Positions 41,211 through 62,960 of a stretch of DNA of 64,000 nt are shown here, piece by piece. The stretch comes from Labilibaculum manganireducens (GTDB lineage: Bacteria > Bacteroidota > Bacteroidia > Bacteroidales > Marinifilaceae). Below the pieces are notes generated by a model. It was not told the origin of the DNA and did no database searches. It worked only from the letters and a program-made list of their open reading frames with translations. Made by a program: the position numbers and the translations under genes. The stretch spans positions 62,001 to 126,000 of the forward strand of contig NZ_MVDE01000014.1 of NCBI RefSeq assembly GCF_002843385.1, given 5' to 3'. Positions within the stretch are counted from its first letter, which is position 1. Every line of letters starts with the position of its first letter.

Positions 41211-41633
41211 ATGAAAAAGCTTTTTTTTGTATCGGTGGGTGTTATTGGCCTTTTGTTTTGTGTTTGGTTTTTTGCTGAAGATTATTCTGTGTGCCCAATT
41301 AGTACACAAGTTACTCAAATTAAGTTTGACATAATGGAGATTGATATGGGGCAGTTAGAGCAAGGGAAACCGAAAACAGTCAGTTTTCAGTATAAAAATA
41401 TAGGTGAACACCCACTTTTAATCCAACATGTAGAAACCTCTTGTGGCTGCACTCAACCAGAATGGACTAAACAACCAATAAAACCAGGTGATAGTGCAGA
41501 AATTAAAGTGAGTTATGATGCAAAATATTCCGGGCGTTTTTTTAAGACGATTACGGTGTTTTGCAATACTCTAAACGGGATGAATGAATTGAAAATTAAA
41601 GGAGAAGTAAAACTCTCAGTAAATAATAAATAA
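41211..41633 (+). CDS. DUF1573 protein, membrane-anchored
   Basis: 140 aa. One N-terminal TM segment or uncleaved signal (FFVSVGVIGLLFCVWFFA), then a single Ig/ASPM-like beta domain with the DUF1573 signature: KTVSFQYKNIGEHPLLI, VETSCGCTQPEW, KPGDSAEIKVSYDA. The CGC pair is characteristic of the family. Function is unknown; members are common next to NVEALA-type peptide genes and surface lipoproteins. A degenerate piece of its 3' end appears to recur at about 48075-48112. Confidence 0.85.
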   Translation: MKKLFFVSVGVIGLLFCVWFFAEDYSVCPISTQVTQIKFDIMEIDMGQLEQGKPKTVSFQYKNIGEHPLLIQHVETSCGCTQPEWTKQPIKPGDSAEIKVSYDAKYSGRFFKTITVFCNTLNGMNELKIKGEVKLSVNNK

Positions 41634-41849
41634 AATGGGAATAAAGAACAGAAGCTTGTTGCGCCTTAGAAACAAAACAAAGCTTCTGTTCGGGCTCCCT
41701 CCAAAATAAGAAAGGAGGTAATAGGGCAAAGGTATACTAAAATAAGAAAAGGTCTATATGACTTATGCTGTGAAAGGATATATCAGTGTATTTATGAACA
41801 GGAGTAGAGTAACCCCTTTAAGTTTACTTAAAACATTAAATTTAAGAAC
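41634..41849 (+). promoter_or_regulatory. Structured leader upstream of Cys-rich peptide 1 (repeat copy 1)
   Basis: Roughly 200 nt that recur, with only scattered differences, at 48105-48325 ahead of the second peptide gene. First hairpin: GAACAGAAGCTT (41646-41657) pairs perfectly with AAGCTTCTGTTC (41680-41691). Second: CCTCC (41698-41702) faces GGAGG (41714-41718) in AAAGGAGGTAAT, a Shine-Dalgarno-like string 130 nt before the start codon and therefore not an ordinary ribosome binding site. Similarity continues to the ATG (CTTTAAGTTT, then TTTAAGA). It may be a cis-acting 5' UTR, a small RNA, or a recombination site. Confidence 0.7.
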
Positions 41850-42104
41850 ATGAAAAAAATATTAGTTTTTTGTACAGTCGCATTTTTTTTAGCTTTTAGT
41901 ATTAACGAAAACTATGGTGATGCTAATCAGAAATATAGTGAGTCGTTGCAAGATATTTCGTCAATTGCAATGGCAGGCGGTGAAACAGGAGGAGCATTGT
42001 ATCAAACAATGGCATATTGCTCTGCATGGCAAATTAAATTGGCATGTACAACAAAGAAATACAGTTCTCGCTGTAGTAGCTATTATTGTATTGTTAATTA
42101 TTAA
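41850..42104 (+). CDS. NVEALA-type small secreted Cys-rich peptide 1
   Basis: 84 aa. Signal segment ILVFCTVAFFLAFSI, then a propeptide-like stretch whose SLQDISSIAMAGGETGG matches the place and shape of the NVEALA motif (conserved N-x-E-A-L-A followed by Gly/Glu). The final ~35 residues hold four cysteines (AYCSAW, LACTTK, SRCSSY, YCIVNY), able to form two disulfides. It is transcribed behind the duplicated leader and closed by its own hairpin. Function is unknown; the context suggests a processed and exported peptide. Confidence 0.75.
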   Translation: MKKILVFCTVAFFLAFSINENYGDANQKYSESLQDISSIAMAGGETGGALYQTMAYCSAWQIKLACTTKKYSSRCSSYYCIVNY

Positions 42105-42113
42105 TTTGTTTTT

Positions 42114-42140
42114 GAGGGTGTAATTAAGTACACCCTCAAT
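42114..42140 (+). terminator. Hairpin terminator after peptide 1
   Basis: GAGGGTGTA (42114-42122) pairs perfectly with TACACCCTC (42129-42137) around ATTAAG. It lies 10 nt past the peptide stop codon and 36 nt before the next gene, so the peptide message can be produced in excess of downstream genes. Confidence 0.75.
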
Positions 42141-42172
42141 CTGTTCATTATATTTAATATTTGTAATTAATT

Positions 42173-43294
42173 ATGAAAGCAATAATTTTAGCAAAGTTAA
42201 TAGTGATAAGTTTTGTAGTTTGTTCATGTACTGATACAGGTAAAGTATGCGAGGAAGGTAAAAGAATACCCGCTATTGGTAATAACAAGTTCCTTTTTGA
42301 TTCTATTTATGCTGTCCCATTACAAATATTGGAAAATAATATGCTTGGTGATAGAATAAAAGTTGTACAACAACAATGTGGTGATATTTATGTAGGTGAA
42401 TTTAGCGCACATTTCAAGGTTTTTCGGTTTGACAGAAATGGGGAATATAAAAATGAAATAGGCTTTCGAGGTAAAGGGCCAGGTGAATATACATCTTTTG
42501 ACGATTTTATTGTAAGTGCAGATACTGTTGAAATATTGACAGGAACAGGAATGCAATCCAGAATTGTTCGTTATTTAAATAACGGAAAATTCCTATCAGA
42601 GACTCAAATTGATCTAAACGCCATATCGTTTGAGAAAATGAAGTCGACATATCTATTTTCTACCAGTTACCAAAAGAATAGGCATTCAGATCGATTATAC
42701 GTTACCAATTTGGATGGAGGGCAGTGTGTTTCATTTTTACCAGATAAAACGGCTTTTAATATGCCTATAACAGAATGGAAGTTTACGAGGTCAGATACTT
42801 CTGTTTTTTTCAAAGAGGCATTTGATAACTTGGTTTACGAGTTTAATCAAGGAAAATTGAGCGTGCTTTACAATTTGGATTTTAGGAAATATTCTATTCC
42901 CTCTGAATTTTTCTCTAAGCCTATGGTTGAGGGGTTCGAAATGCTTTACAAACAGGGTTTTGGGGTTGTTAAAAATTATTATGAAACACAGGAGTATTCT
43001 GTGTTTGAAATTTTAATTCAAAAGAAGAATGATCCTTCTGTAAAAAATATAATTATATATAATAAAAAAACAGGCGAGATTCAAGAAAATTCTATTTTAG
43101 AAAAAGAGCAAAATTGTTTAGGGCGATTAGTAGGTGTTACGAACTCAAATGAATTAGTTTATTTAGAATATCCATACCACATAATTGATGAAATAGATTC
43201 TTTTATGCGTTTACCTATAGTCAATAAAGAAATACTGAAAGACATTACATTGTATGATAATCCAGTATTATTTTACTGTAAACTTAAAGATTAA
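42173..43294 (+). CDS. 6-bladed beta-propeller lipoprotein 1
   Basis: 373 aa with lipobox FVVCSCTD. The segment FRFDRNGEYKNEIGFRGKGPGEYTSF near residue 95 carries the GxGPGEY hallmark of the 6-bladed propeller (NHL/BF3164-like) lipoproteins of Bacteroidota. Several shorter blade repeats follow. Such proteins are presumed surface or periplasmic binding proteins; the ligand is unknown. It sits between peptide 1 and a CxxC protein, the same order as at 48.3-50.3 kb. Confidence 0.8.
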   Translation: MKAIILAKLIVISFVVCSCTDTGKVCEEGKRIPAIGNNKFLFDSIYAVPLQILENNMLGDRIKVVQQQCGDIYVGEFSAHFKVFRFDRNGEYKNEIGFRGKGPGEYTSFDDFIVSADTVEILTGTGMQSRIVRYLNNGKFLSETQIDLNAISFEKMKSTYLFSTSYQKNRHSDRLYVTNLDGGQCVSFLPDKTAFNMPITEWKFTRSDTSVFFKEAFDNLVYEFNQGKLSVLYNLDFRKYSIPSEFFSKPMVEGFEMLYKQGFGVVKNYYETQEYSVFEILIQKKNDPSVKNIIIYNKKTGEIQENSILEKEQNCLGRLVGVTNSNELVYLEYPYHIIDEIDSFMRLPIVNKEILKDITLYDNPVLFYCKLKD

Positions 43295-43380
43295 ATTTCG
43301 TGATATATGAGCTTAGTTGGAATATTTCCAATGTTTTTTTTTGTTAAATTAATAGATTGATTGTTGAAAAACATAAACTG

Positions 43381-43974
43381 ATGAATAGTAAAATTATTGT
43401 TACAATAACGGTAGTTGTAATCCTATCCATATTTATAACATATAAATATCAAGTTGCAAGCTTGAGAAAAGAACGTGATATTCAAATGAGAATGATTGCG
43501 AAGGAATCATTAATTAGAGATTCAATTTTATTTATGATAGCACCAAAGTTAGCACCTATTGTATCCAAATCATGGTCAATTAAGAAGAGAGATAAAAATA
43601 AGGCTTTGTTTGTAATTATTCCAGAAGAGGGATGTTGGGCTTGCTTTGAGCCAAAGTTAAAAGGTCTTTCATACTTGGAGAAAATATATTCAATGGAAGT
43701 TATTTTTATTACCTCTGATATACATATTAGAACTTTGAGAATTATTTTGAAAGATGAATTATTCTCAAAGAACGTTATCAATATCTCAAGTTTGGACTCA
43801 GAATATGTGAAATCACTTCCAGGAAAAGATATTGTATTTGTACTGTATGACAGCGTGAGTCAGGTAAGTATTCCTTATGTGGAGAGTAAGTTTGAAGATC
43901 CGATAGAATTTATTAAGCGGAATTATAATGCATGTTATTTGGATAATGAAAAAGCAAATAAATGTTATGAATAA
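43381..43974 (+). CDS. Membrane-anchored thioredoxin-like CxxC protein 1
   Basis: About 197 aa from the ATG at 43381 (the frame opens with TTG 24 nt earlier). One N-terminal TM helix (IIVTITVVVILSIFITY), a charged helix, then a beta strand ALFVIIPEEGCWACFEP with CWAC at residues 85-88. The strand, the CxxC and the later KDIVFVLYDS match a reduced thioredoxin/TlpA-like fold, although the cis-Pro motif is not obvious. It probably acts in the periplasm on thiols or disulfides. It always follows a propeller gene in this cluster. Confidence 0.6.
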   Translation: MNSKIIVTITVVVILSIFITYKYQVASLRKERDIQMRMIAKESLIRDSILFMIAPKLAPIVSKSWSIKKRDKNKALFVIIPEEGCWACFEPKLKGLSYLEKIYSMEVIFITSDIHIRTLRIILKDELFSKNVINISSLDSEYVKSLPGKDIVFVLYDSVSQVSIPYVESKFEDPIEFIKRNYNACYLDNEKANKCYE

Positions 43975-44082
43975 GTAGACATTAAAAAATAATTAAGGTG
44001 GAGTAGTAAGGTGTTGTGAGTATTTAATTGATAGCATTTTAGAGAAGAGAGAGACATGAAATTAAAGTTTTAAAAACAAATT

Positions 44083-44565
44083 ATGAAAATAAATTTTGTG
44101 TATGTCTTAGTTGTAGTATTTGTCCTTATTGTAATTCTTATTCGTAATAATATTGGTGGGGATAAAAAAAAGAGAGAAATAATCTTGGATAGGAATTGTG
44201 AAATTGTGGGGATAGAAGATTCTGTCATTTTTAAAGTTGATCCCTTTGGAGAACATTTTAAATGTGTTACATTTTTACAAGATGAAGTAATTTTAGAATT
44301 AAGACATTATAAGCCTTATCTAAAAAAGTATCCTGATATATCGTTTCTATTTTATATTGAAACTGATGATAAAGAATATGTAATTGAAACGTTAAAAGAA
44401 ATGAGCTTTACTTATCCCGTTTTTATTGAATCCAAGAATAATGAAAAGATGATATTTATAAATTATTTGTTGGATTCTAAAAGCTGTATTTTGGAAATAA
44501 CCAATCCATCTATTTCTAATTTTGGAGAGCAGTTAGAACACTATTCAGGGGGCAATAGATATTAG
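44083..44565 (+). CDS. Small membrane-anchored protein, degenerate thioredoxin-like
   Basis: 160 aa. N-terminal TM helix (FVYVLVVVFVLIVILI), then a soluble domain. Where neighbours have a strand plus CxxC, this has FKCVTFLQDEVILELRH without a CxxC pair, followed by DISFLFYIETDDKEYVIETL, resembling the second strand and helix of the thioredoxin-like neighbours (compare YTVLFIINGDNYKDL at 50.05 kb). It may be a decayed or non-redox paralogue. Codon use is like that of its neighbours. Confidence 0.45.
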   Translation: MKINFVYVLVVVFVLIVILIRNNIGGDKKKREIILDRNCEIVGIEDSVIFKVDPFGEHFKCVTFLQDEVILELRHYKPYLKKYPDISFLFYIETDDKEYVIETLKEMSFTYPVFIESKNNEKMIFINYLLDSKSCILEITNPSISNFGEQLEHYSGGNRY

Positions 44566-44666: not shown

Positions 44667-44810
44667 ATGCGAATACCTTTAATCCTATTATGCGTTGCCT
44701 GTTTGACAGTTAGTTGTAAACCTTCACAAGGAAAGATTGACGAAGAATCCTCGAAAATTGCTTTTCGGGAAGAATTAAACGAAGTAAAAACAGTTAAGTT
44801 GGTAACTTAA
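44667..44810 (+). pseudogene. Truncated 5' copy of the membrane fusion protein gene (copy 1)
   Basis: 47 codons from ATG, starting RIPLILLCVACLTVSCKPSQ. It matches the first ~140 nt of the complete gene at 47012 with about five substitutions, then stops at GGTAACT followed by TAA. It keeps the lipoprotein signal but none of the transport domains. Similarity begins exactly at the start codon; upstream sequence is unrelated. It is probably a duplication scar, though a short lipoprotein could still be made. Confidence 0.85.
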
Positions 44811-44841: not shown

Positions 44842-45972
44842 ATGAATAAAGTATTTATTATGTGTTCCCTTATCTTTTTATCTTCTTGTTTAAATTCTGA
44901 AGAAAAAGTTAATGACTTACTCGTGGGAAATGGAACTGTGGATGTTCTGAAAAATATTGGTGACGTTAAAAAATTATCAATACAAATAGACAGAGTAATC
45001 CCCTTAGAAACAAGCGATAGTTGTATTATTGGTTCAATTAGTAAAATTGATATAGACCACGGAGATTTTCTAATTCTGGATCGATGGAAGTCTAAATCAG
45101 TTTTTTGGTTTTCAGGGCAAGGGGAATTCAGAAATAAAATTAATACTATAGGCAAAGCCGAAGGTGAATATTTGGGTTTAGAGGATTTTTTAAGAAATTC
45201 AAACGGAAAAGAGTATCTGCTGTATGATAGAACACTTAGTAAATTATTAACCTATAACAATAAAAGGAATTTTGTAAAAGAAGCCTCCTTAAATAAACAG
45301 ATTTGTAATATTGTGAATACAACAAGTAGTGATTTTTTGATACAAACCACATCAGGAGAAGATTTTTTGTTGGAATTATGGGATCAAAATTTCATAAAAA
45401 AGCACGAGTTTTTGCACCGACCTGAATATGTAAAGAATTATTTTATGGGTGCAGAATTTACTTTAAAGAAAGATAATACAAATACAATTTCTTTTTGCCC
45501 TCCATTTTCTAATATTATCTATAAATGGAAGAATGAAAAGATGGCCGTATCTTATGCGATTAAAAATATTGATCTTTTTCCTAATAAAGCTTTTTTTGAC
45601 AAATACAAAGGAAGACATCCAAGTCTGCTTTTAGAGGAAATTAAAAAACAAAAATATATAAATTTTCTTGATTTTATCGAAAATTCTGATGTGCTGATTT
45701 TGAAATATTACAGAGGAGAACAGAAAACAGTTACTTTATTTAATAAACATTCAGAGACTTCCGTTTCTTATAAGGTAGGGAATAGTTGTATTGCTAACCT
45801 TATTTTTAATTCCATATCCGTTACAGAAGGAGGACAATTCATTAGCTATATTTTCCCTTATCAAATAAATAGTTTAAGTAACAATAATGTGTTGATGGAG
45901 CATGTGTCTGTTTCTTTTAGTGAAAATAATAATCCATACATTGTTTATCTAGACGTAGCGGGGGAAGAATAA
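44842..45972 (+). CDS. 6-bladed beta-propeller lipoprotein 2
   Basis: 376 aa with lipobox IFLSSCLN. Blade motifs include DIDHGDFLILDRWKSKSVFWF and GKAEGEYLGLEDF, a variant of GxGPGEY in which Pro is lost. It differs strongly from propeller 1, so the repeats of this region are not recent tandem copies of the whole unit. Eight nt separate it from the next CxxC gene. Confidence 0.75.
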   Translation: MNKVFIMCSLIFLSSCLNSEEKVNDLLVGNGTVDVLKNIGDVKKLSIQIDRVIPLETSDSCIIGSISKIDIDHGDFLILDRWKSKSVFWFSGQGEFRNKINTIGKAEGEYLGLEDFLRNSNGKEYLLYDRTLSKLLTYNNKRNFVKEASLNKQICNIVNTTSSDFLIQTTSGEDFLLELWDQNFIKKHEFLHRPEYVKNYFMGAEFTLKKDNTNTISFCPPFSNIIYKWKNEKMAVSYAIKNIDLFPNKAFFDKYKGRHPSLLLEEIKKQKYINFLDFIENSDVLILKYYRGEQKTVTLFNKHSETSVSYKVGNSCIANLIFNSISVTEGGQFISYIFPYQINSLSNNNVLMEHVSVSFSENNNPYIVYLDVAGEE

Positions 45973-46593: not shown

Positions 46594-46959
46594 ATGCGTT
46601 GTTTATTTATTTGTATTGTCTTATTGCTTGCAGGAATCCAATCTATTAGTGCTCAGAATTCAATGATAATGGAGAAACGCTATATAACCCTAATGTCGGA
46701 TTATGAGCCGATGCATGGAAAAATTATTAAGCTGGAAAAAAAAGAAGAACGCCTGCTGATTACATTGGAAATAAAAGATGTTTCTAAAGAAATTATTCTT
46801 CAGAACACAATTGAAAATTTAGTTTTATTTGAATCTGCAAAAGTTGGCTATATGTTTGTTTGTAAAAAATCAGAGGCGCAATCGACAGTTGCTATTTATT
46901 ACCAAAATGAAGATGGGGGAGTTCGTGTATATCCATTTTATCTGAAAGAGGAAAAATAG
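46594..46959 (+). CDS. Small secreted protein of unknown function
   Basis: 121 aa with a clear signal peptide ending near SISAQ. The mature part is beta-rich (HGKIIKLEKKEERLLITLEI, ENLVLFESAKVGYMFVCKK) and could be a small OB-like barrel. It loosely resembles the 110-aa protein at 50884 in length, position and strand pattern (GKV followed by EHVVILKFENEGKETK), so the two may be distant paralogues. It is probably cotranscribed with the CxxC gene 2 nt upstream. Function not recognised. Confidence 0.55.
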   Translation: MRCLFICIVLLLAGIQSISAQNSMIMEKRYITLMSDYEPMHGKIIKLEKKEERLLITLEIKDVSKEIILQNTIENLVLFESAKVGYMFVCKKSEAQSTVAIYYQNEDGGVRVYPFYLKEEK

Positions 46960-47011: not shown

Positions 47012-48070
47012 ATGCGAATACCTTTAATTCTATTATGCGTTGCCTGTTTGGCAGTTAGTTGTGCACCTTCACAAGGAAAGATTGACGAAGAATCCTCGAA
47101 AATTGCTTTTCGGGAAGAATTAAACGAAGTAAAAACAATTAAGTTGGTAACTACCACTTTTCAAAAGGAACTGGTGAGTAATGGAAAGCTGCGGGCCTTT
47201 TGCAAGTGCGACTTAAACTTTAAGATTTCCAGTGTAGTTAAGAAGCTTACTGTTAGCAATGGCACTTTTGTAAAGAAAGGTGCTGTATTGGCAACATTGG
47301 AAGATTTTGAGCAAAAAACCAGTTTAGAGAAAAGCAGACAGGCATTGGCAAAGGCTCAACTTGAGCTGGAGGATGTTCTCATTGGTCAGGGGTACGATGG
47401 GAAAGATACCCTTGAAATACCAAAAGAAGTGTTGCGGATTTCGAAATTAAAATCCGGTTTTTTTTCTGCTGGCTTAGAATACAAAAAAGCACTGTACGAT
47501 ATGCAGGCAACCCGCCTTCTTGCTTCTTTCGATGGCGTTGTAGCCAATCTGAATAGTAGGATTTATGACAAAACAGACGGTAGCAAGCCATTCTGCACGC
47601 TGATAGACCGCAAAAGTTTCGAGGTTGAATTTTCGGTAATGGAATCGGAATTGAAAGATTTACAAAATGGTCAAACTGTTAGTATATTTCCTTTTGCTTT
47701 CGAGAAGGAATATAAGGGTAAGGTGACCCAAATAAATCCAGTTGTTGAGGAGAATGGATTGGTAAAAATTACAGCAAGAGTAACCAATAATGGAGGTAAG
47801 TTATTGGAAGGAATGAATGTGCGGGTTCTTGTTCAGAATAGTTTGCCAGATCAACTGGTTGTTCCTAAGTCGGCAGTGCTGCTCCGTCAAAACAAAGAGG
47901 TTGTTTTTACCCATCAGGAAGGAACAGCCATTTGGCACTATGTAAGTACAGGGCAAGAAAACAGTTCATCTTACACAATTACCGAAGGACTGCAAGCCGG
48001 TGATGAAGTGATTGTTGATGGAAACTTGAATTTAGCACACGAGGCGAAGGTGAGAGTACTTGGGGATTGA
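47012..48070 (+). CDS. RND-type periplasmic membrane fusion protein (HlyD/AcrA family), lipoprotein
   Basis: 352 aa with lipobox LAVSCAPS. Layout: membrane-proximal strand (TTTFQKELVSNGKLRA), first half of the lipoyl domain (VVKKLTVSNGTFVKKGAVLATL, about 68-90), a short helical hairpin (about 95-165), second lipoyl half (LLASFDGVVANLNSRIYDKTDG), beta-barrel (EFSVMESELKDLQNGQTVSIFP) and C-terminal domain (GLQAGDEVIVDG). It would link the RND permeases and the TolC-type protein encoded 5 kb downstream. It is the only complete copy; two truncated 5' copies flank it. Confidence 0.9.
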   Translation: MRIPLILLCVACLAVSCAPSQGKIDEESSKIAFREELNEVKTIKLVTTTFQKELVSNGKLRAFCKCDLNFKISSVVKKLTVSNGTFVKKGAVLATLEDFEQKTSLEKSRQALAKAQLELEDVLIGQGYDGKDTLEIPKEVLRISKLKSGFFSAGLEYKKALYDMQATRLLASFDGVVANLNSRIYDKTDGSKPFCTLIDRKSFEVEFSVMESELKDLQNGQTVSIFPFAFEKEYKGKVTQINPVVEENGLVKITARVTNNGGKLLEGMNVRVLVQNSLPDQLVVPKSAVLLRQNKEVVFTHQEGTAIWHYVSTGQENSSSYTITEGLQAGDEVIVDGNLNLAHEAKVRVLGD

Positions 48071-48325
48071 TTAAAATGAAAAGAGAAGTGAAATTCTCAT
48101 AAAAAGAATAAATAAAATGGGAAAAAGAACAGAAGCTTGTTGCGCCTTAGAAACAAAACAAAGCTCCTGTTCGGGCTCCCTCCAAAATTAGAAAGGAGGT
48201 AATACGGCAAAGATATACTAAAATAAGAAAAGGTCTATGTGACCTGTGCTGTGAAAGGATAGATCAGCACAATAAGGAGATATGTAATGCCTTTAAGTTT
48301 GCATATGGTATAGAAAAAATTTAAG
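48071..48325 (+). promoter_or_regulatory. Structured leader upstream of Cys-rich peptide 2 (repeat copy 2)
   Basis: The same sequence as 41634-41849, starting right after the membrane fusion protein gene. Its first ~45 nt (AGAGAAGTGAAATTCTCA, then AATAAATAAAATGGG) resemble the 3' end of the DUF1573 gene at 41600, so the duplicated block began inside that gene. The first hairpin has one A.C mismatch (arm GCTCCTGTTC instead of GCTTCTGTTC); the CCTCC/GGAGG element is intact. TATACTAAAATAAGAAAAGG is identical in both copies. Confidence 0.7.
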
Positions 48326-48547
48326 ATGAAAAAAAGAATATTTGCAGGTATCGCAGCAAGTTTATTTGCCACAGCATTGTTTTTTAATTTAAGTGAGGCA
48401 AATGTGAATAGTAATATTTCATTGAATGATATTGAAACTATGGCGCAGGCATCAGGGGAAGGTAGTTTTACTTGTCCAAATGGATGTTTGGCTAAAGTGG
48501 GAATGTGTTATTGCAATGGTTTCCATAAGTACAAAGAGAATGTTTAA
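48326..48547 (+). CDS. NVEALA-type small secreted Cys-rich peptide 2
   Basis: 73 aa. Signal segment IAASLFATALFFNL is followed by a propeptide with LNDIETMAQASGEG, close to the NVEALA consensus. The mature part has a tight four-Cys block CPNGCLAKVGMCYC. Compared with peptide 1, the start and the pro-region agree in layout but the mature part is unrelated in spacing, as expected of diversified secreted peptides. Its hairpin terminator follows 30 nt after the stop. Confidence 0.78.
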   Translation: MKKRIFAGIAASLFATALFFNLSEANVNSNISLNDIETMAQASGEGSFTCPNGCLAKVGMCYCNGFHKYKENV

Positions 48548-48709: not shown

Positions 48710-49744
48710 ATGAAAAATACTTTTTTATTTAGTTGTCTGGTTTTAATCTTATTTCTTAGTTGTAATAATATGGATTCGGATAAATCTAAAACATTTCAGG
48801 AATCTTCAGATAAAACTGTAAATGTTAAAGATAAAATTACAGACATAAAAACTGATCTTCTATTTCAATATTGTAGTATGACAATTTCTGACTCTATATT
48901 GATTATTAACGAATTGACTCCTTCTAATGCGAAAGGCATTCATTTTTTCAATAAAAACAGTTTTAAATATATTACGAGTACTGGTTTTATGGGTAAAGGT
49001 CCTGGTGAAATAACGGTTTTAGGAGAGAGTAGGAGTAGTTACAATTCCAAAGCTATTTGGGTAGATGATTACGGGAAAATGGTTAGTTGGAAATTTCCGA
49101 TTGATAGTATTTTAAGCAATGAAAATTTTATTCCAACTGAAAAATTGAAAATGAATAAAGATTCGTTTCAAGTTAAAAGTGTATTCATAAATGATAGTAT
49201 AACAATAGGAAGATCAGTAATTCCAACAAGCTATCATTCCATGGATATATCCACAACAAAGTTGAATAATTATACATATAAGATTGAAGAATATGGTTAT
49301 ATCTATCCCGATCTTAAAGGGAGAGAATCGTATTCTAGTTTTGATCTATCTACTAAAAATGAAATATATACAACTTGCTTTAGTTATGTAGACTTAATCA
49401 CGATTTGTGATTTAAAGGGCAATTTGAGATATAATATATATGGGCCTCAATGGAATCCTAAAGAGACAAAAGGAATTCAGTTTTACGGAGTAGTAAAAAC
49501 ATATAAAAATTATATTATTGCTTCTTATATTGGTGATAAACATGTTGTATTTACTGATGAAGGTGGTCGAGTTGATATTGCACCATCAAAATTATTAGTT
49601 TTTGACATTAATGGAAATTATGTTAAAACAATTGAAGTTGGGTATGAGTTTAGTGAATTTTGTATAGATGAAGAAAATAATAGAGTAATCGCCTATTTTG
49701 ATAATAGAATAAATCCATTAGGTTATTTTTCATTAGATATTTAG
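48710..49744 (+). CDS. 6-bladed beta-propeller lipoprotein 3
   Basis: 344 aa with lipobox LFLSCNNM. TGFMGKGPGEITVLGE near residue 92 is the family hallmark; later blades include KLLVFDINGNYVKTIEVG. It follows peptide 2 and its terminator by about 110 nt, repeating the peptide-terminator-propeller order seen at 41.8-43.3 kb. Ligand unknown. Confidence 0.8.
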   Translation: MKNTFLFSCLVLILFLSCNNMDSDKSKTFQESSDKTVNVKDKITDIKTDLLFQYCSMTISDSILIINELTPSNAKGIHFFNKNSFKYITSTGFMGKGPGEITVLGESRSSYNSKAIWVDDYGKMVSWKFPIDSILSNENFIPTEKLKMNKDSFQVKSVFINDSITIGRSVIPTSYHSMDISTTKLNNYTYKIEEYGYIYPDLKGRESYSSFDLSTKNEIYTTCFSYVDLITICDLKGNLRYNIYGPQWNPKETKGIQFYGVVKTYKNYIIASYIGDKHVVFTDEGGRVDIAPSKLLVFDINGNYVKTIEVGYEFSEFCIDEENNRVIAYFDNRINPLGYFSLDI

Positions 49745-49766: not shown

Positions 49767-50300
49767 ATGAAATATTTAACAGTAACTGCAGTTATAATCT
49801 CAATTATTTGTGTTTCATGCCTTTCAGATAAAGAGAAGGATTTGAGAAGCATTGTAAATCATCCTGTAAACATAGATATATCTGACACTGTTTGGCATAG
49901 AGACACAGCATTGAGTTTTGTTGATTTTCGTCGAAAGTATAAATATTTATCGGTTGTATATCTATTAAATGGGTGCCGACCTTGTTATCAAGAATTCATC
50001 AATTGGCATAAGAAAATGGAATCTTTTACAACATCCAAAGATTATACGGTTCTTTTTATTATCAATGGAGATAATTATAAGGATTTGATGTCTAAAGTAG
50101 ATGAAATAGATCAGGTTGATAAGAAATATTACATATTGATGGATCCTCATTCTAAATTCGTGGGTAAAAATTTAAATATTCCGAAATGGATAAGGGATGG
50201 TTCTGTCCTAATTGATAAAGAAAACAAAATAAAGATGGTTGGAAAGCCATGGGTTAATAGTTCTATGATAGAATTGTTTAATAGGGTGTGTGTAAATTAA
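49767..50300 (+). CDS. Thioredoxin-like CxxC lipoprotein 3
   Basis: 177 aa with lipobox ICVSCLSD. Strand YLSVVYLLNGCRPCYQEF places CRPC at residues 70-73; then YTVLFIINGDNYKDL, and a late strand DGSVLIDKENKIKMVGKP like the C-terminal hairpin of AhpC/TlpA proteins. It is the clearest thioredoxin-fold member of the four. It lies 22 nt after propeller 3. Confidence 0.7.
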   Translation: MKYLTVTAVIISIICVSCLSDKEKDLRSIVNHPVNIDISDTVWHRDTALSFVDFRRKYKYLSVVYLLNGCRPCYQEFINWHKKMESFTTSKDYTVLFIINGDNYKDLMSKVDEIDQVDKKYYILMDPHSKFVGKNLNIPKWIRDGSVLIDKENKIKMVGKPWVNSSMIELFNRVCVN

Positions 50301-50758: not shown

Positions 50759-50800
50759 GAGTGCCAATTAATTTTTAATTAGTTATTTTTTATGATAGGT

Positions 50801-52861: not shown

Positions 52862-52968
52862 ATCCTATTTTTTTCGTTTCTAATTAATTCATGGAATATG
52901 TCGTAATATACAAATGTATATATATATTGCTATGTGTAGTCTGTTTTGATAAATTATTAAATAAACTT

Positions 52969-55900
52969 ATGGTTCGATTTCTACTTTCCCGCCCCATTGC
53001 TGTTACAATGACATTTATAGCTATTCTTTTGTTGGGGATGGTATCTATTGGGCTTTTGCCAGTGTCCTTAATGCCCGACATCTCGATTCCGGAAGTAACG
53101 GTACAGATGAATTATAAGAATGCCTCAGCCCGTGTGCTCGAAAATTCGGTTGTTGCTCCTGTTCGGCGGCAATTGATGCAGGTAGCACATTTGGAGGATA
53201 TTCACAGTGAAACCCGTGATGGCAGTGGAATTATTCGCTTGAAATTGGCCTATGGCAGTGATATTAATTTGGCATACATCGAGGTGAACGAAAAAATTGA
53301 TCGGGCCATGTCTTCCCTGCCAAGGGATATGCCACGGCCTAAAGTGATAAAGGCCAGCGCAAGTGATTTACCTGTATTTCACCTTAATTTAAGTTTAAAG
53401 CAGGAAGGTAACGAGCAGAAGTTTATGGAATTGAGCGAATTTGCCGATGCTGTAATTCGAAAGCGAATAGAACAAATGCCCAAAGTGGCTATGGTAGATT
53501 TAACAGGACGAAGTTTTCAGGAAATATTGATTGTGCCTAATGAGTTGCAGATGAAATCATTGGGATTCATATTGAAAGATCTGGAAACACTTATTCAAGA
53601 GAATAATATCGATTTTGGGAATCTAAGTATTCGCGATGGCTACTATCAGTACAGCATTTGTTTTTCTTCCCGCTTGCGAAACAAGAAGGATATTGAGGAA
53701 CTTTATTTGAAAGCCGGAGATCGGTTGATCCAGTTGAAAGATCTGGCTGAAGTGAAAATTGTTACACAGCCCCGAAAAGGCATGGCCTTAATTAATGGAC
53801 AGGAAGGCATTTCTTTGGCAGTTATCAAACAATCGGATGCCCGCCTTCAGGAAATGGAGGAGGAATTAAAAGAGATGGTTGGGATTTTTGAAAAAGATTA
53901 TCCCGAGATTGCGTTTGAAATTTCTCAGGATCAGACTCGTTTATTGGATTATTCAATTAACAATTTGAAACAGAGTTTATTGTGGGGAGCGGGATTGGCT
54001 TTTTTGATCATGTTCTTTTTTCTGAAAGACTTTAAAGCTCCCTGGCTGATTGGGATATCCATTCCTGCATCTCTAATTATTTCTCTTCTTTTTTTCCATT
54101 TGCTTGGTTTGTCTTTAAATATTATCTCTTTATCCGGTTTGGTATTGGGAATTGGAATGATGATTGATAACTCGATTATTGTTATTGATAATATTGTCCA
54201 GTTCCGGGAACGGGGGGAGAATTTATTCTCCTCTTGTGTGAAAGGAACCAATGAAGTCATTCGTCCACTTCTGAGTTCTGTTTTAACTACTTGTGCAGTG
54301 TTCATACCCATGATTTTTATTTCGGGGATAGCAGGTGCCATGTTCTACGATCAAGCCATGGCTGTAACTATTGGTCTTTTCGTTTCCTTTTTTGTTTCTA
54401 TAAGCTTACTGCCAGTGTATTATCGCTTATTTTACAGAAAAGAAAGAAGGGGAAGAATGGATCGTCTGGTGTCTAAAATTAGTGGTGTTGATTACGCGAA
54501 ATTGTATGAAAAAGGACTTCGTTTGGTATTTCGAAATCAGTTGGCTTCCAGTTTGTTTTTTTTAATGTTCATTTTTGTTGGAGCTGTTTTGATATTTAAA
54601 ATGGAGAAATCCCGCTTGCCAAAAGTTGAACAGCATGAGTTAATGTTGCAAGTAGATTGGAATGCCCGGATTCATGTCGATGAGAATAAAAAACGGGTGA
54701 AGGAACTGCTTTCCTTGGTAGTCGATTCTATTCAGCAATCATCAGCCTTGGTTGGAGAACAGCAGTATTTATTAAATAGAGAACAAGAATTCTCGAGTTC
54801 GGAGAGTCGGATTTACTTAAATACGGAAAACGAAAAGCGAATGCATGTGGTGGAAAATGTATTACATCATTATTTAACAGAGCAATATCCTTCAGCCAGA
54901 ATTCAATTTTATGCACCACCGAATTTATTTGAGCAGATTTTTGGAGCTAATGAAGCTCCTCTAGTTGCCAGATTAAGTGTGCGGAGTAGTGAGGAAACCA
55001 AACAGGTAAATTTATTGAAATTACTCGAGAAGGATTTTCGAAAGTGTTTTTCTGATCAGTTGGAAATATCTCAAAGTATGCAGGAACAGCTGCAACTAAC
55101 CATTGATCCTGTTCAGTTGCTGAGTTATAATCTGGAGCCGGATGTGGTATATCAAAAGTTACGAACAGCTTTTAACGACAATCAGTTGGCGGTTATTAAA
55201 GAGAATCAGAGTTTTGTTCCAATTGTTTTGGGTGAGGGGCAAAAGAGAATTTCTAATATTCTGGAAAAGACTCTTATTCAGAATTCGCAAGGTGATGATT
55301 ATTCTTTAAACCAATTGGTTTGTGAGGAATCCCGTGTTAGTTTGAAAAGTATTGTTGCCGGAAAAGAAGGAGAATATCTTCCATTTAATATAAATATAAA
55401 GGAATCGGATTTGCTGTCTTCTCAAAATAAGATTCGTAAAATCAACAGAAAATATCCAGATGTAAATTTATCCTTTTCGGGAAGTGTTTTTTCAAATCGG
55501 GTATTAATGAGGCAGCTGGGACTGGTTCTGATAATTTCTTTGCTGTTGCTTTATTTTATTTTGGCGGCGCAATTTGAATCATTAAGTCAGCCATTAATTG
55601 TACTGCTGGAGGTCCCGATCGATATTGGAGGTGCTTTGCTGCTTTTAAGCATGTTTGGCGGAAGTCTGAATTTGATGTCTCTCATAGGAATTATTGTGAT
55701 GTCAGGAATCATTATCAATGATTCGATTCTAAAAATTGATACGATCAACCGTCTTCGAAAAGAGGAAGGTTATGGATTGATTCGCGCCATCAGTACTGGA
55801 GGACAACGAAGATTAAAGCCTATTTTAATGACTTCTTTAACCACCATATTGGCATTGATTCCTTTTCTTTTTACAAATGGTCTGGGCTCCGATTTGCAAA

Positions 55901-56001
55901 AACCTTTGGCAATAACTGTTATTGGAGGTATGGGAATTGGAACTATAGTGAGTTTATATTTTGTGCCTCTTTGTTATTATTATTTGAATAGGAAAAAATA
56001 G
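52969..56001 (+). CDS. RND-family efflux permease 1 (HAE1/AcrB type)
   Basis: About 1011 aa. The start is moved to the ATG at 52969 (VRFLLSRPIAVTMTF), the usual RND N terminus; the longer frame adds unrelated residues. Twelve TM helices in the standard 1+5+1+5 plan with two periplasmic loops. TM4 has LGIGMMIDNSIIVIDNI, where an Asp of the proton relay is kept; the second half has MSGIIINDSILKIDTI and TSLTTILALIPF. Tripartite RND pumps export drugs, lipids or peptides; the local context favours peptides or redox-active molecules. Confidence 0.93.
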   Translation: MVRFLLSRPIAVTMTFIAILLLGMVSIGLLPVSLMPDISIPEVTVQMNYKNASARVLENSVVAPVRRQLMQVAHLEDIHSETRDGSGIIRLKLAYGSDINLAYIEVNEKIDRAMSSLPRDMPRPKVIKASASDLPVFHLNLSLKQEGNEQKFMELSEFADAVIRKRIEQMPKVAMVDLTGRSFQEILIVPNELQMKSLGFILKDLETLIQENNIDFGNLSIRDGYYQYSICFSSRLRNKKDIEELYLKAGDRLIQLKDLAEVKIVTQPRKGMALINGQEGISLAVIKQSDARLQEMEEELKEMVGIFEKDYPEIAFEISQDQTRLLDYSINNLKQSLLWGAGLAFLIMFFFLKDFKAPWLIGISIPASLIISLLFFHLLGLSLNIISLSGLVLGIGMMIDNSIIVIDNIVQFRERGENLFSSCVKGTNEVIRPLLSSVLTTCAVFIPMIFISGIAGAMFYDQAMAVTIGLFVSFFVSISLLPVYYRLFYRKERRGRMDRLVSKISGVDYAKLYEKGLRLVFRNQLASSLFFLMFIFVGAVLIFKMEKSRLPKVEQHELMLQVDWNARIHVDENKKRVKELLSLVVDSIQQSSALVGEQQYLLNREQEFSSSESRIYLNTENEKRMHVVENVLHHYLTEQYPSARIQFYAPPNLFEQIFGANEAPLVARLSVRSSEETKQVNLLKLLEKDFRKCFSDQLEISQSMQEQLQLTIDPVQLLSYNLEPDVVYQKLRTAFNDNQLAVIKENQSFVPIVLGEGQKRISNILEKTLIQNSQGDDYSLNQLVCEESRVSLKSIVAGKEGEYLPFNINIKESDLLSSQNKIRKINRKYPDVNLSFSGSVFSNRVLMRQLGLVLIISLLLLYFILAAQFESLSQPLIVLLEVPIDIGGALLLLSMFGGSLNLMSLIGIIVMSGIIINDSILKIDTINRLRKEEGYGLIRAISTGGQRRLKPILMTSLTTILALIPFLFTNGLGSDLQKPLAITVIGGMGIGTIVSLYFVPLCYYYLNRKK

Positions 56002-60779: not shown

Positions 60780-60968
60780 TAGATGTGATTCCTTGGATTC
60801 AAAAGATGCTGGGGGGTTAATACTGAAGAAAAACATATGCAGGAAATCCAGCCTGATTTTATTTTCAAATAATGAAGAGGGAATCCAATGGGCAAGATTA
60901 GATTCATAATATCAACTAATCATTGAATAGTATATAAAAACCATGTTAATTCATAAATCTATTGTTAA

Positions 60969-62960
60969 ATGAAATCCATTCCAGAAATTATTTTATTTGG
61001 TTTAATAGCTTTCTTACTAAATTCATGTACACAAAATGTACCATCCGGAGTAAAAAACACTTTAAAATTTTCAGGAGAGAATAGGTTTGAACTTGAGAAA
61101 GTTATTGAGCATTATCAAACAAAAGAAGATAGTCTTAAGTTGAAAGCCGCTTATTTTCTTATTGAGAATATGCCCTATCACTTCTATTTTGCTATAGAAG
61201 ACCATAATCGGTATGATGAACTATTCGATAGTATTTCTGTCTGCAGAATTTCTGTTAAATCAGGTGATGAATGTTTTGATAATGAGCTTCGGGGAAAAGC
61301 AATTGATCGGTATGTAAATCAGTTTTTGAATGAAAATCGTTTGGGAAGATATCGGGGACAAATTTGTTCTGATGCTCAAACAATTGATTCTGAGTTTTTA
61401 ATTGAAAATATTGATTATGCTTTTAAGGCATGGGAGTTCCCTTGGGCCCGTCAATATTCTCTTGATGAATTTTGCAGATATATATTGCCTTATCGATATG
61501 GGAACGAAGCTCCGGACAGATGGCGAAAGAAATTTTACAATCAGTTTAAGTGGGTTGTCGATTCGATTAAAAATCCCAAAGATGTTCTTGAAGTGACTTC
61601 ATATATGAATAAGCTTTTTAGAAATAAGGTATCACATTCTCATGCGCTTTCCAGATTGGAGAATAATATTAAACCATCTCAATTGGCAAAAGGAATGGTT
61701 GTTGAGGGGTGTGAAGGACAAACTGGCATGGGTGAATGCATCTTACGCTCAATAGGAGTTCCTGTTTCTATAATAACTTTCCCTTGGTGGGGGAATCGAA
61801 ATGTAGGGCATAATATGAATGCATTACTTGATTCCTCGAAACAATGGCAATATTTTGCGTTTGATGATTGGGATCCATCACATAAATTAAGAGATTTTGC
61901 CCCTAAAATTTATTTTAAGCAATTTGCGAGGGTTTTGGATCAGAGTATAGTGAATCAACAATTTATGGAGGATGGTAGCAGGAATTTTCAAAATGTTAAA
62001 AACATAAATATTAATGTTATAGATAAACGAATAGTTTATTTATATGTTTTTGGAGATCGTTCATGGTCGCCAATTGACAAAGCTAAGAATAATTGTTCTG
62101 GAATTGTATTCGAAAATGTTGGAACGAATGATTATATGTATATGGCTGCAGTGTTACAAGACGAACATTTAGAGCCTGTTACTTATCCTTTTAGAGCTGA
62201 TAGTATTGGGAATCCAATATATTATATTCCAGATTCTTTGTCTACAATATCTTTTACTTTTGACAGGAAATATCCTCCTAAGGATAGGGAAGCTCGTTGT
62301 GACGCATTAATCGATGGACAATTCCAAACTGGGGATAAATTTAATTTTTCAAAAAGCAGAACAATTTATTCCATCAAAGATCGGTTGAAATATCAAGAGA
62401 ATATTCTGAAAATTAAATCTGTACAGAGCAAGTATATACGGTATGTTTTTCCTGAAGGAGTTGCTTCTTGTTGGGATGGACCGGCCGAAGTAGCTTTTTA
62501 TCATGCTGATTCAACGGGTATAAAAAAATTAACCGGAAGATATTTTGGATCATCTCAACTTAGCAGTGAGCAGATAAAGATTATGACGGATGGAGACATA
62601 CTAACTTATGTTGAGTGGAAAACAAATCCAAAGTTGCAGGATGCTCCTACGGGGAATATAATTATGAAGGAGTACGCCGAAAATCCTATCTGGATTGGAC
62701 TTGAACTTGATTCCATAACAGAGATCACTCATGTTGGAATTTGTCCTCGAAATGATAAAAACGGTATTTATCCCGGTATGTACTACGAATTATTTTATTG
62801 GGATAATCAGTGGAAATCTTTAGGAAAAAAAATAGCCATGACTGACATGATAACGTATGATCATATTCCATCTAATGCCCTTTTATGGTTGCGTAATTTT
62901 TCTGAAGGAAAAGAAGAACGTATTTTTACAATAAAAGATGGCAAACAAATTTGGTGGTAA
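60969..62960 (+). CDS. Transglutaminase-like lipoprotein with C-terminal discoidin-like domain
   Basis: 663 aa with lipobox FLLNSCTQ. A transglutaminase core is visible: Cys248 in EGCEGQTGMGECILRSIGVP, His281 in NVGHNMNALL, Asp299 in FDDWDP, in the order Cys-His-Asp. The helical N-terminal part (YFLIENMPYHF) is typical of large Bacteroidota members. The C terminus (about 510-660; WIGLELDSITEITHVGICPRND) resembles an F5/8-type (discoidin) module. It may cleave, crosslink or amidate proteins or peptides at the cell surface; processing of the cluster peptides is an inference. It lies about 190 nt past RND permease 2. Confidence 0.8.
   Translation: MKSIPEIILFGLIAFLLNSCTQNVPSGVKNTLKFSGENRFELEKVIEHYQTKEDSLKLKAAYFLIENMPYHFYFAIEDHNRYDELFDSISVCRISVKSGDECFDNELRGKAIDRYVNQFLNENRLGRYRGQICSDAQTIDSEFLIENIDYAFKAWEFPWARQYSLDEFCRYILPYRYGNEAPDRWRKKFYNQFKWVVDSIKNPKDVLEVTSYMNKLFRNKVSHSHALSRLENNIKPSQLAKGMVVEGCEGQTGMGECILRSIGVPVSIITFPWWGNRNVGHNMNALLDSSKQWQYFAFDDWDPSHKLRDFAPKIYFKQFARVLDQSIVNQQFMEDGSRNFQNVKNININVIDKRIVYLYVFGDRSWSPIDKAKNNCSGIVFENVGTNDYMYMAAVLQDEHLEPVTYPFRADSIGNPIYYIPDSLSTISFTFDRKYPPKDREARCDALIDGQFQTGDKFNFSKSRTIYSIKDRLKYQENILKIKSVQSKYIRYVFPEGVASCWDGPAEVAFYHADSTGIKKLTGRYFGSSQLSSEQIKIMTDGDILTYVEWKTNPKLQDAPTGNIIMKEYAENPIWIGLELDSITEITHVGICPRNDKNGIYPGMYYELFYWDNQWKSLGKKIAMTDMITYDHIPSNALLWLRNFSEGKEERIFTIKDGKQIWW

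What the first reader, a model, noticed from the sequence alone, without database searches (positions are those of the whole stretch)
41211..62960. Modular peptide maturation/export cluster: two NVEALA-type peptides, four propeller + CxxC pairs, one tripartite pump
The sequence shows an ordered repetition: peptide, terminator, propeller, CxxC protein (twice), plus two more propeller-CxxC pairs, all on one strand between a signal peptidase/DUF1573 set and an MFP-RND-TolC-RND set, ending in a transglutaminase-like lipoprotein. NVEALA peptides, propeller lipoproteins and DUF1573 are known families with unknown jobs. Inference: the CxxC proteins set disulfides in the Cys-rich peptides, the signal peptidase releases them, the RND pump exports them, and the propellers bind or sense them. 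I know of no described function for such a system.
Basis: partly seen in the sequence, partly recalled or inferred. Interest (0 to 1): 0.9.

Follow-up and report, generated by a model that had tools for sequence, protein, structure and literature searches.

The report
Swappable secreted-peptide cassettes in Bacteroidota
A stretch of DNA in a Bacteroidota bacterium encodes small cysteine-rich peptides together with matching partner proteins, carried as exchangeable cassettes inside a recurrent set of genes that looks built to release and export them, and similar sets occur widely in the phylum although no function for them was found in the papers that could be searched.

Summary
The genes are as described, with corrections. 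The pump adaptor (MFP, 47012-48070) is not next to the RND genes: a 4.8-kb cassette separates them. Neither window peptide matches Pfam NVEALA; 7 of 10 relatives' peptides do.

Comparison makes it more interesting. Of genomes with NVEALA peptides 23 of 28 carry this RND family, against 45 of 364 without. Near this pump family, propellers, a signal peptidase and a transglutaminase-like lipoprotein recur (30, 17, 16 of 45 loci), but hardly near other RND pumps of ten of these genomes (1, 0, 0 of 20). Propeller subtype tracks the mature peptide far more than its leader, so propellers are probably cognate partners. A covarying leader RNA without Rfam match precedes a part of the peptide genes.

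Best reading: Sec-exported Cys-rich peptides, cut by a dedicated signal peptidase, oxidised by a ResA-like thioredoxin, exported by RND-TolC, with cognate propellers as immunity proteins or receptors. Gene set, exchange and pairing rest on sequence comparison; processing, export, redox direction and activity are inferred.

The parts
38100..40031 (+). Wzy_C (O-antigen-ligase-like) membrane protein with TPR tail; recurrent neighbour of the pump
   Evidence: Pfam Wzy_C 54.2 bits; in 15 of 45 pump-family loci vs 2 of 20 control RND loci, Fisher 0.07
40034..41146 (+). type I signal peptidase (S26); 'dedicated' is inferred
   Evidence: Pfam S26 136.3 bits; 17 of 45 vs 0 of 20
41211..41633 (+). DUF1573 protein; its 3' end is duplicated behind the MFP
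   Evidence: 118.8 bits; repeat
41646..41789 (+). leader RNA copy 1: H1 41646-41691, H2 41698-41718 (CCUCC/GGAGG), H3 41765-41789 (stem, UGAAAGGAUA loop, stem)
41850..42104 (+). peptide precursor 1 (84 aa; leader ends AMA/GGE; Cys-rich mature part)
   Evidence: no Pfam hit; preceded by leader RNA
42112..42139 (+). hairpin behind peptide 1 (11 pairs), possible processing or attenuation site
   Evidence: such sites not enriched over shuffles
42173..43294 (+). propeller lipoprotein 1 (DUF5128)
   Evidence: 93.5 bits; best relative is the L170 propeller, beside a peptide of similar Cys spacing by eye
43357..43974 (+). CxxC thioredoxin-like protein 1
   Evidence: member of alignment A6, whose profile matches ResA
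44083..44565 (+). thioredoxin-like relative without CxxC (160 aa)
   Evidence: matches the session's cxc profile
44667..44810 (+). truncated copy 1 of the MFP start
   Evidence: 92.8% over 167 columns to the intact MFP with upstream bases; 97% to copy 2
44842..45972 (+). propeller lipoprotein 2 (DUF5128), orphan: no peptide gene seen in its module
   Evidence: 125.9 bits
45980..46591 (+). CxxC thioredoxin-like protein 2
   Evidence: A6
46594..46959 (+). 121-aa secretory protein of unknown family
   Evidence: no Pfam family, no NCBIfam match near a cut-off
47012..48070 (+). intact membrane fusion protein (MFP) of the pump
   Evidence: HlyD_D23 44.8 bits; other matches in the genome have 21-27% identity, apart from the two truncated copies
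48127..48270 (+). leader RNA copy 2, behind a 3' remnant of DUF1573 (48073-48115)
   Evidence: 94% to copy 1; two copies in the genome at E 0.001; H3 stem of 6 pairs
48326..48547 (+). peptide precursor 2 (73 aa; leader ends AQA/SGE; mature CPNGC..CYC)
48710..49744 (+). propeller lipoprotein 3 (TolB_like, just below cut-off), partner of peptide 2
49767..50300 (+). CxxC thioredoxin-like protein 3
   Evidence: AhpC-TSA E=0.003, below cut-off; A6
50396..50758 (+). truncated copy 2 of the MFP start, joined to the remnant below
   Evidence: 99.1% over 341 nt
50733..50771 (+). 3' remnant of a third peptide gene that is whole in relative L039 (78-aa NVEALA peptide)
   Evidence: identical stretch; collinear from here to the pump; L039 peptide 33.9 bits to PF14055
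50881..51216 (+). 111-aa secretory protein, conserved in L039 (75% aa)
51213..52259 (+). propeller lipoprotein 4 (TolB_like), open although the peptide gene before it is a remnant
   Evidence: 63 bits; dS 0.25 and dN/dS 0.23 to L039
52256..52861 (+). CxxC thioredoxin-like protein 4
   Evidence: AF2 model pLDDT 85.4, best PDB match ResA; dN/dS 0.16
52891..56001 (+). RND transporter 1
   Evidence: ACR_tran 586.7 bits
56086..57558 (+). TolC-type outer-membrane channel
   Evidence: OEP 106.8 bits
57618..60779 (+). RND transporter 2 (used as the marker of this pump family)
   Evidence: ACR_tran 311.5 bits
60969..62960 (+). large lipoprotein with Cys and His as in transglutaminase-like folds (motif level, recalled) and a galactose-binding-like part in its C-terminal third
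   Evidence: A5: C248 and H281 nearly invariant; profile positions 449-515 of 646 match CBM6 chains, E 3e-22; F5_F8_type_C below cut-off; 16 of 45 vs 0 of 20 loci

Best explanation
The locus is a chassis plus cassettes. The chassis (SPase, DUF1573, Wzy_C/TPR protein, MFP, RND, TolC, RND, transglutaminase-like lipoprotein) releases and exports small peptides. A full cassette carries a leader RNA, a peptide precursor, a propeller lipoprotein and often a ResA-like CxxC protein; cassettes are exchanged by recombination. Most likely path: the precursor enters the periplasm by Sec and stays anchored by its N-terminal hydrophobic segment; the signal peptidase of the locus cuts behind A-x-A about 42 residues in; the CxxC protein oxidises or proof-reads the disulfides; the MFP/RND/TolC pump exports the mature peptide from the periplasm. 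The propeller of the same cassette recognises that mature peptide. I take the peptides to act on close competitors, with propellers (and possibly CxxC proteins) as immunity, because modules without a peptide gene, or with only a remnant, keep propeller and CxxC protein. SHOWN by sequence comparison: gene set, recurrence, cassette exchange, co-segregation of propeller with mature peptide, covarying leader RNA; thioredoxin fold by profile and model. INFERRED: processing, export, redox direction, antagonism. My odds: secretion by this pump 0.75; propeller is the cognate partner 0.75; antagonism 0.4, signalling 0.3, other 0.3.
For: Recurrence: 45 pump-family loci of at least 12 kb, found by RND2 alone, against 20 other RND loci from ten of the same genomes: propeller 30 vs 1, SPase 17 vs 0, lipoprotein 16 vs 0, at least 3 of 5 accessory families 19 vs 0. 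Genome level: RND2 family in 23 of 28 NVEALA+ and 45 of 364 NVEALA- genomes; 24 of 54 NVEALA matches over cut-off in such genomes lie within 30 kb of RND2. Spread: of 53 named-collection loci of at least 15 kb, 40 have a propeller and 25 at least two accessory families. Exchange: against L039 the pump block is 84% identical in DNA while the cassettes between constant blocks do not align; prop4/cxc4 dS 0.25/0.29 against 0.70-0.88 for RND1, TolC and MFP; G010 and G006 carry propellers in permuted order, one block 98.5% identical among others at 68-91%. Pairing: all 10 of 246 propellers (prop3 itself included) with a C-x-[NDSG]-G-C...C-x-C peptide nearby rank in the top 15 by similarity to prop3; over 68 peptide-propeller pairs from 49 loci, mature-peptide similarity follows propeller similarity (z 4.9-6.0), leader similarity weakly or not (z 0.7-2.3). 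CxxC behind propeller: 50 of 73 vs 42 of 250.
Against: No export, processing or activity was measured. 15 of 45 pump-family loci show no propeller; 23 of 54 NVEALA matches lie on other contigs than the pump and 7 more on the same contig but further off. The regular expression for peptides did not separate test from control loci (20 of 45 vs 5 of 20, p=0.17), nor did the Wzy_C protein clearly (15 vs 2, p=0.07). The profiles were built on the test loci, which favours detection there. Only 50 of 200 propellers with a close gene behind them have a CxxC protein there. Only 15 of 98 peptide candidates before propellers have the H3 loop upstream. Co-segregation of neighbours can reflect linkage as well as function, and different dS can reflect regional rates. 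In L039 the prop4 frame is broken near its start although its peptide gene is whole, the reverse of what immunity predicts, unless it is a sequencing error. ResA is a reductase as far as I know (recalled).
Confidence: 0.6

Rival explanations
1. Peptide signalling: the exported peptides are strain-specific pheromones and the propellers are envelope receptors that pass the signal on, in some genomes to a linked two-component system.
For: Histidine kinase and response regulator genes lie beside peptide-propeller modules in L049 and L161, and near a propeller in L164. Propeller-peptide co-types fit receptor and ligand. The sensor kinase at 26960-31057 in this window carries propeller repeats, but a beta-galactosidase and an esterase close by point to polysaccharide use.
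Against: No regulator among the genes of the window cluster scanned. A kinase/regulator-like cluster was found in 6 of 64 loci. Orphan propeller modules are easier to explain as immunity.
Confidence: 0.3
2. Maturation and envelope quality control: propellers and CxxC proteins are generic folding or assembly factors for secreted Cys-rich peptides that stay on the surface as structural or adhesive elements.
For: Thioredoxin fold; in bacteroidetocin loci deletion of the thiol oxidoreductase attenuates activity and its expression does not protect a sensitive strain (PMC6671954, passages); transglutaminase-like lipoprotein in the set.
Against: Generic factors should not track the type of mature peptide, nor be swapped with it or kept without it.
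Confidence: 0.2
3. Chance neighbourhood: propellers, TlpA-like proteins and RND pumps are all common in Bacteroidota, and the cluster is several unrelated operons side by side.
For: The families are common (recalled); the window shows duplicated, broken pieces; 8 of 8 congeners lack the RND2 family at E 1e-60.
Against: Control RND loci rarely have these neighbours; similar sets recur in loci from Marinifilaceae to Flavobacteriaceae.
Confidence: 0.05

Closest known systems
Bacteroidetocins (class IIa-like peptide toxins of Bacteroidetes; PMC6671954, passages seen)
   Same: small secreted peptides with four cysteines; a thiol oxidoreductase in the locus
   Different: 15-16-residue double-glycine leader and ABC exporter with double-glycine peptidase there; here a ~42-residue leader ending A-x-A, a signal peptidase and an RND-TolC pump; no immunity protein known there, probable cognate propellers here; the terms 'RND' and 'propeller' have 0 occurrences in that text
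NVEALA proteins, Pfam PF14055
   Same: leader with N-terminal Lys, hydrophobic segment, then ...NVEALA[SDR]GE; 7 of 10 relatives' peptides scanned are members
   Different: the two window peptides are not detected; a text search for NVEALA found no paper
B. thetaiotaomicron BT0662-BT0669 (gene table of PMC10434189, passages seen)
   Same: by annotation an O-antigen ligase family protein (BT0662), a hypothetical protein (BT0663), a 6-bladed beta-propeller (BT0664), signal peptidase I (BT0667) and an RND adaptor (BT0669) close together
   Different: sequence not seen here; in the passages seen the genes are only rows of an iron-response table with P values of 0.11 to 0.44, and no function is proposed
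Polymorphic toxin-immunity loci with exchangeable cassettes (PMC3482391, abstract start and passages seen)
   Same: variable cassette inside a constant export context; orphan partner genes (orphan immunity recalled)
   Different: no large toxin with a variable C-terminal domain; that paper states that beta-propellers had not been found among immunity proteins
agr-type pheromone loci (recalled, no call)
   Same: variable peptide/partner module between constant parts
   Different: no AgrB-type membrane peptidase and no kinase/regulator pair among the cluster genes scanned
ResA/TlpA thiol-disulfide oxidoreductases
   Same: fold and CxxC
   Different: very divergent, with varied CxxC dipeptides, and encoded behind propellers
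MdtABC-like pumps with two RND subunits (recalled, no call)
   Same: one MFP, two RND proteins, TolC
   Different: accessory set that points to peptides; one RND far diverged

Membership tests
NVEALA (PF14055) | profile score over the curated cut-off of 27 bits | tested here: not met
   0 matches in the genome at E 0.001 and none for either peptide; 7 of 10 relatives' peptides scanned score 27.3 to 55.0
NVEALA (PF14055) | leader architecture: Lys, hydrophobic segment, A-x-A at about residues 40-42, then [SGD]GE | tested here: met
   regular expression and by eye
Bacteroidetocin | short leader with GG cleavage site | tested here: not met
   window leaders are about 42 residues and end AMA / AQA
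Bacteroidetocin | ABC exporter with double-glycine peptidase in the locus | tested here: not met
   none among the genes of 38100-62960 scanned with Pfam
Bacteroidetocin | thiol oxidoreductase in the locus | tested here: met
   ResA-like CxxC proteins
Polymorphic toxin-immunity system | variable cassette inside constant context, with orphan partners | tested here: met
Polymorphic toxin-immunity system | toxic activity neutralised by the cognate partner | not testable with these tools
   needs a killing assay
agr-type peptide signalling | membrane peptidase and kinase/regulator pair in the locus | tested here: not met
   no such Pfam family among the cluster genes scanned; kinase/regulator genes beside some relatives only
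Tripartite RND pump | MFP, RND, TolC encoded together | tested here: met
   the MFP is separated by a cassette
Thioredoxin-like ResA/TlpA | thioredoxin fold with CxxC | tested here: met
   profile E 4.6e-9 to a thioredoxin-like chain and 4.5e-7 to ResA; model pLDDT 85.4, TM normalised by target 0.67-0.73 for chains described as ResA in the list
Any Rfam family for the leader RNA | score over a family's gathering threshold | tested here: not met
   0 matches in window 36000-64000 and in 6 loci with the element

The most novel reading that the evidence does not exclude
A system spread through the phylum Bacteroidota, not described in the literature I could search, in which strain-specific Cys-rich peptides are made from Sec-type precursors, released by a dedicated signal peptidase, exported by a two-RND pump, and recognised by cognate six-bladed propeller lipoproteins that serve as immunity or receptor; the whole module is exchanged as a cassette, and in a part of the Bacteroidales expression is controlled by a new structured leader RNA in which an upstream helix and a GGAGG hairpin compete for the same CUCC stretch.
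Probability: 0.45. Interest if true: 0.92.

Novelty: new variant of a known kind. Interest (0 to 1): 0.8.

Why it matters
NVEALA peptides, DUF5128/TolB-like propellers and DUF1573 proteins are Bacteroidota families without a known job (as far as I know). Tying them to one chassis, and showing that propeller subtype goes with the type of mature peptide, turns them into a testable hypothesis: peptide-specific immunity or reception in a dominant phylum of gut and sea. It would add an export route for ribosomal peptides (Sec plus signal peptidase plus RND-TolC instead of an ABC/double-glycine exporter), a use for beta-propellers that a survey of polymorphic toxins had not seen among immunity proteins (PMC3482391, passage), and a new leader RNA. 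A similar set, by annotation, lies in Bacteroides thetaiotaomicron (BT0662-BT0669; PMC10434189, passages), where genes can be removed easily.

Tried and rejected
Chance neighbourhood: rejected by the control loci. Plasmid or phage origin: no near match to the pump DNA in the plasmid collection, and none of 3 pattern matches in viral contigs encodes a relative of the MFP. Anti-phage defence: of 10 proteins scanned with PADLOC one had a weak match (Csm5, 16.6 bits, for CxxC protein 3), taken as chance. Known RNA family: none at gathering scores; the best sub-threshold match in 41600-42300 was L20_leader (26.8 of 58.7 bits, E 0.005) over the end of peptide 1 and its hairpin, taken as chance. NCBIfam gave only weak matches far below cut-off.

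Results that count against or weaken the case. The peptide regular expression does not discriminate. The leader-RNA pattern search is noisy: of 31 distinct places found (24, 9, 2 shared), 10 are followed by a small secretory peptide, 6 of these in genomes not used to frame the pattern; for the other 21 I did not test whether they lie inside genes; the reversed control pattern gave 8 matches in 295 genomes and 2 in 56. In one search H3 has a stem of at least 4 pairs at 14 of 15 sites before a peptide and at 6 of 43 other sites; one of those six (L021) is a cut copy of L125 and was dropped for the test (14 of 15 vs 5 of 42). In one search the measure 'pairs with a change on both sides' does not exceed shuffles (6 vs 5.6). 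Of 98 peptide candidates upstream of propellers 15 have the H3 loop; many of the 98 rows look like spurious ORFs, and some of the 68 pairs do too. Leader similarity is not quite free of signal (54 of 2000 shuffles as high for the top 20 pairs).

Sampling. The 45 test loci are those of at least 12 kb among 60 fetched (L039-L098); 15 were dropped as too short; one of the 45 (L079) is the downstream side of a locus already counted and adds to none of the accessory counts. Some genomes give two loci. Not all RND2 matches were fetched. The profiles came from the test loci and the window, with later propeller rounds on all loci. Some genomes appear in both the unnamed and the named collection (for example L084 and L204); identical proteins were dropped, not. 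The genome counts are for sets of the same size and with the same handles, which I take to be the same genomes; the window's own genome counts as NVEALA-negative. None of the tests corrects for phylogeny.

The model of the large lipoprotein, made without an alignment, failed (pLDDT 31) and is not used. Literature: nine searches in an open-access library without preprints; 'not described' is limited to that. Papers of which I saw passages or term counts: PMC6671954, PMC3482391, PMC10352776, PMC10434189, PMC8939145, PMC4573289; the others only as listings with the start of the abstract.

Full report
What is there. The window lies in G000:C14. From 38100 to 62960 the main genes are on the + strand: Wzy_C/TPR membrane protein, signal peptidase S26, DUF1573, peptide 1, propeller 1, CxxC 1, a CxxC-less relative, a truncated MFP start, propeller 2, CxxC 2, a 121-aa protein, the intact MFP, peptide 2, propeller 3, CxxC 3, a second truncated MFP start, a 111-aa protein, propeller 4, CxxC 4, RND1, TolC, RND2 and a large lipoprotein. 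The intact MFP is thus separated from RND1 by a cassette. Apart from the two truncated copies, MFP matches elsewhere in the genome have 21-27% identity.

Scars. The MFP start is repeated (99% between intact and second copy, 97% between first and second copy, 93% between first and intact including upstream bases), and the stretch from the DUF1573 tail to the peptide start is repeated (82%), its second copy fused directly behind the MFP stop. Relative L039 (genome G050, read as reverse complement) shows the same fusion behind its MFP and a third leader copy before a 78-aa NVEALA peptide (33.9 bits). In the window only the last 39 nt of that peptide gene remain (50733-50771), joined to the second truncated MFP start. 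Propeller 4 and CxxC 4 behind it are open and 87 and 91% identical to L039.

Constant and variable parts. Between the window and L039 these blocks align in DNA: Wzy_C protein to signal peptidase (68%), DUF1573 and leader (79%), MFP (82%), and 50721 onwards through the pump (84%); propellers 1-3, CxxC 1-3 and both peptides have no DNA counterpart at E 1e-5, and three of these eight (propeller 1, CxxC 3, peptide 2) have only local protein matches of 24-38%. Synonymous divergence is 0.25 for propeller 4 and 0.29 for CxxC 4, but 0.88 for RND1, 0.70 for TolC and 0.82 for MFP; the simplest reading is that the cassette is younger in the two genomes than the pump, though regional rates can differ. G010 and G006, of one genus, have 11 and 18 propeller ORFs in the stretches compared, against 3 and 3 ORFs that fit the peptide pattern; matching blocks lie in permuted order, one block is 98.5% identical while others are 68-91%, and one shared leader (89.9% over 237 bp) precedes two different peptides. 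These are signs of cassette exchange. The dN/dS of propeller 4 (0.23) and CxxC 4 (0.16) shows purifying selection over the whole branch between the two genomes; it cannot show that selection went on after the peptide was lost.

Recurrence. RND2 relatives at E 1e-60 occur in 21 of 56 genomes of the family and in none of 8 congeners, and at 1e-180 in 68 of 392 genomes of the order: an accessory system. In 45 loci of at least 12 kb against 20 other RND loci from ten of the same genomes, propellers occur in 30 vs 1, SPase 17 vs 0, lipoprotein 16 vs 0, CxxC profile 12 vs 0, DUF1573 12 vs 1, Wzy_C 15 vs 2, peptide pattern 20 vs 5; at least three of five accessory families 19 vs 0 (caveats under Tried and rejected). 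A separate scan with RND1 in named genomes gave the best 80 of 324 relatives, with titles from Bacteroidales, Prolixibacteraceae, Flavobacteriaceae and others; of 53 with at least 15 kb, 40 have a propeller and 25 at least two of the five families. Across 392 genomes the RND2 family is present in 23 of 28 with an NVEALA match and in 45 of 364 without (Fisher 5e-15); in the family 13 of 20 and 8 of 36 (p 0.003). Of 54 NVEALA matches over cut-off in RND2-positive genomes, 24 lie within 30 kb of RND2, 7 further off on the same contig, 23 on other contigs.

Cognate pairs. Peptide 2 has a mature CPNGC...CYC core. Of 246 propellers in the loci used, 10 have a C-x-[NDSG]-G-C...C-x-C peptide nearby, in five loci (window, L071, L095, L154, L242), and all 10, propeller 3 itself included, are among the 15 propellers most similar to propeller 3 (five of the ten are paralogues of one array in L154, and two in L242 flank one peptide, so the independent loci are five). 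The leaders in L154 and L095 differ clearly from that of the window by eye. Propeller 1 has one outstanding relative, in Puteibacter (34%, 209 bits; next 23%, 89 bits), and the peptide before that one has a similar cysteine spacing (by eye, alignment score low). Over 68 peptide-propeller pairs from 49 loci, the 20 or 40 most similar propeller pairs have more similar mature peptides than shuffled pairs (z 4.9 to 6.0; 0 to 3 of 2000 shuffles as high) and more similar last 30 residues (z 4.8 to 5.8; 1 to 6 of 2000), but leaders weakly or not (z 0.7 to 2.3; 54 to 471 of 2000). Over 1683 pairs with an MFP on both sides, propeller similarity correlates with that of the last 30 residues (0.24), with MFP (0.17) and with leader (0.07). 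So propellers go with the mature peptide, which argues for recognition; persistent linkage alone is the remaining alternative.

CxxC proteins. Where a gene of 130-310 aa follows a propeller it has CxxC more often than where such a gene follows another gene (50 of 73 vs 42 of 250), although only 50 of 200 propellers with a close gene behind them have one. The profile of 21 of them (chosen for having CxxC) finds a thioredoxin-like chain at 4.6e-9 and ResA at 4.5e-7; the AF2 model of CxxC 4 (pLDDT 85.4) has ResA as best PDB match. Whether they oxidise, reduce or isomerise is open. Bacteroides lack the general machinery for disulfide formation according to PMC6671954 (passage), which makes a dedicated oxidant plausible.

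Leader RNA. Upstream of both window peptides and of peptides in other genera lies a structured element: H1, a long stem of varying sequence; H2, CUCC or CCUCC pairing with GGAGG; H3, a stem around UGAAAGGAUA. On 15 sequences H3 has 76.7% standard pairs, 31 cells changed on both sides against 13.1 in shuffles, and 7-12 when slid. H3 pairs at 14 of 15 sites before peptides and at 6 of 43 other sites. H1/H2 regions fold with mean z -2.95 (n=15, range -0.7 to -4.9). In several of the predicted folds a short helix that encloses H1 uses the CUCC stretch of H2, so the two may exclude each other; this switch is a suggestion. No Rfam family matches at gathering score. The H3 loop precedes 15 of 98 peptide candidates, so the element is not general.

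How it most likely works, and what is open, is given under Best explanation. The most doubtful step is the role of the propeller. Immunity is favoured by orphan modules and by arrays with many more propellers than peptides, signalling by linked kinase/regulator genes in some genomes. Nothing here measures activity.

Known or new. No paper in the open library holds the word NVEALA. A search for PF14055, TIGR04149, DUF5128, PF17170 and 'NVEALA domain' gave seven papers: five hold only the string PF14055 and by title are mostly about Plasmodium; the two with TIGR04149 concern other peptide classes. Combined searches found no description of such a locus. One paper listed, an iron-response study, has in its gene tables BT0662 (O-antigen ligase family), BT0663 (hypothetical), BT0664 (6-bladed beta-propeller), BT0667 (signal peptidase I) and BT0669 (RND adaptor) of B. 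thetaiotaomicron (PMC10434189, passages): by annotation the same kind of set in a model strain; I have not seen its sequence. Against bacteroidetocins leader and exporter differ. The locus works like a polymorphic peptide/partner system but is a member of none that I could test.

Noticed in passing
window 36427-37531 (-): IS630-like transposase in two overlapping ORFs (DDE_3 and HTH domains; the IS630 label is recalled) between a polysaccharide-use region and the peptide cluster; may mark the left border of an acquired island.
   Followed up: partly
window 10649-35969: Polysaccharide-utilisation-like region: TonB-dependent receptor-like protein, hybrid two-component sensor with propeller repeats (26960-31057), esterase, GH42 beta-galactosidase (only some genes scanned).
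   Followed up: no
L154 (G340:C1:3523000-3542900): Tandem array of near-identical units of a 78-aa Cys-rich peptide plus a propeller, four peptide copies found, in front of an MFP.
   Followed up: partly
L039, propeller 4 (rc 12180-13226): Frame broken near the N-terminus in a run of A, whereas the window copy is open; sequencing error, decay or phase variation not distinguished.
   Followed up: no
L049, L161, L164: Histidine kinase and response regulator genes near peptide-propeller modules.
   Followed up: partly
L094 and L194: Peptides from a Bacteroidales genome and a Cellulophaga record share a C-terminal DC.GW.G.C ending, and their propellers are among the most similar pairs in the pair table.
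   Followed up: no
   Followed up: partly
B. thetaiotaomicron BT0662-BT0669 (literature, not fetched): By annotation the same kind of gene set in a model strain, seen only as rows of a gene table (PMC10434189).
   Followed up: no
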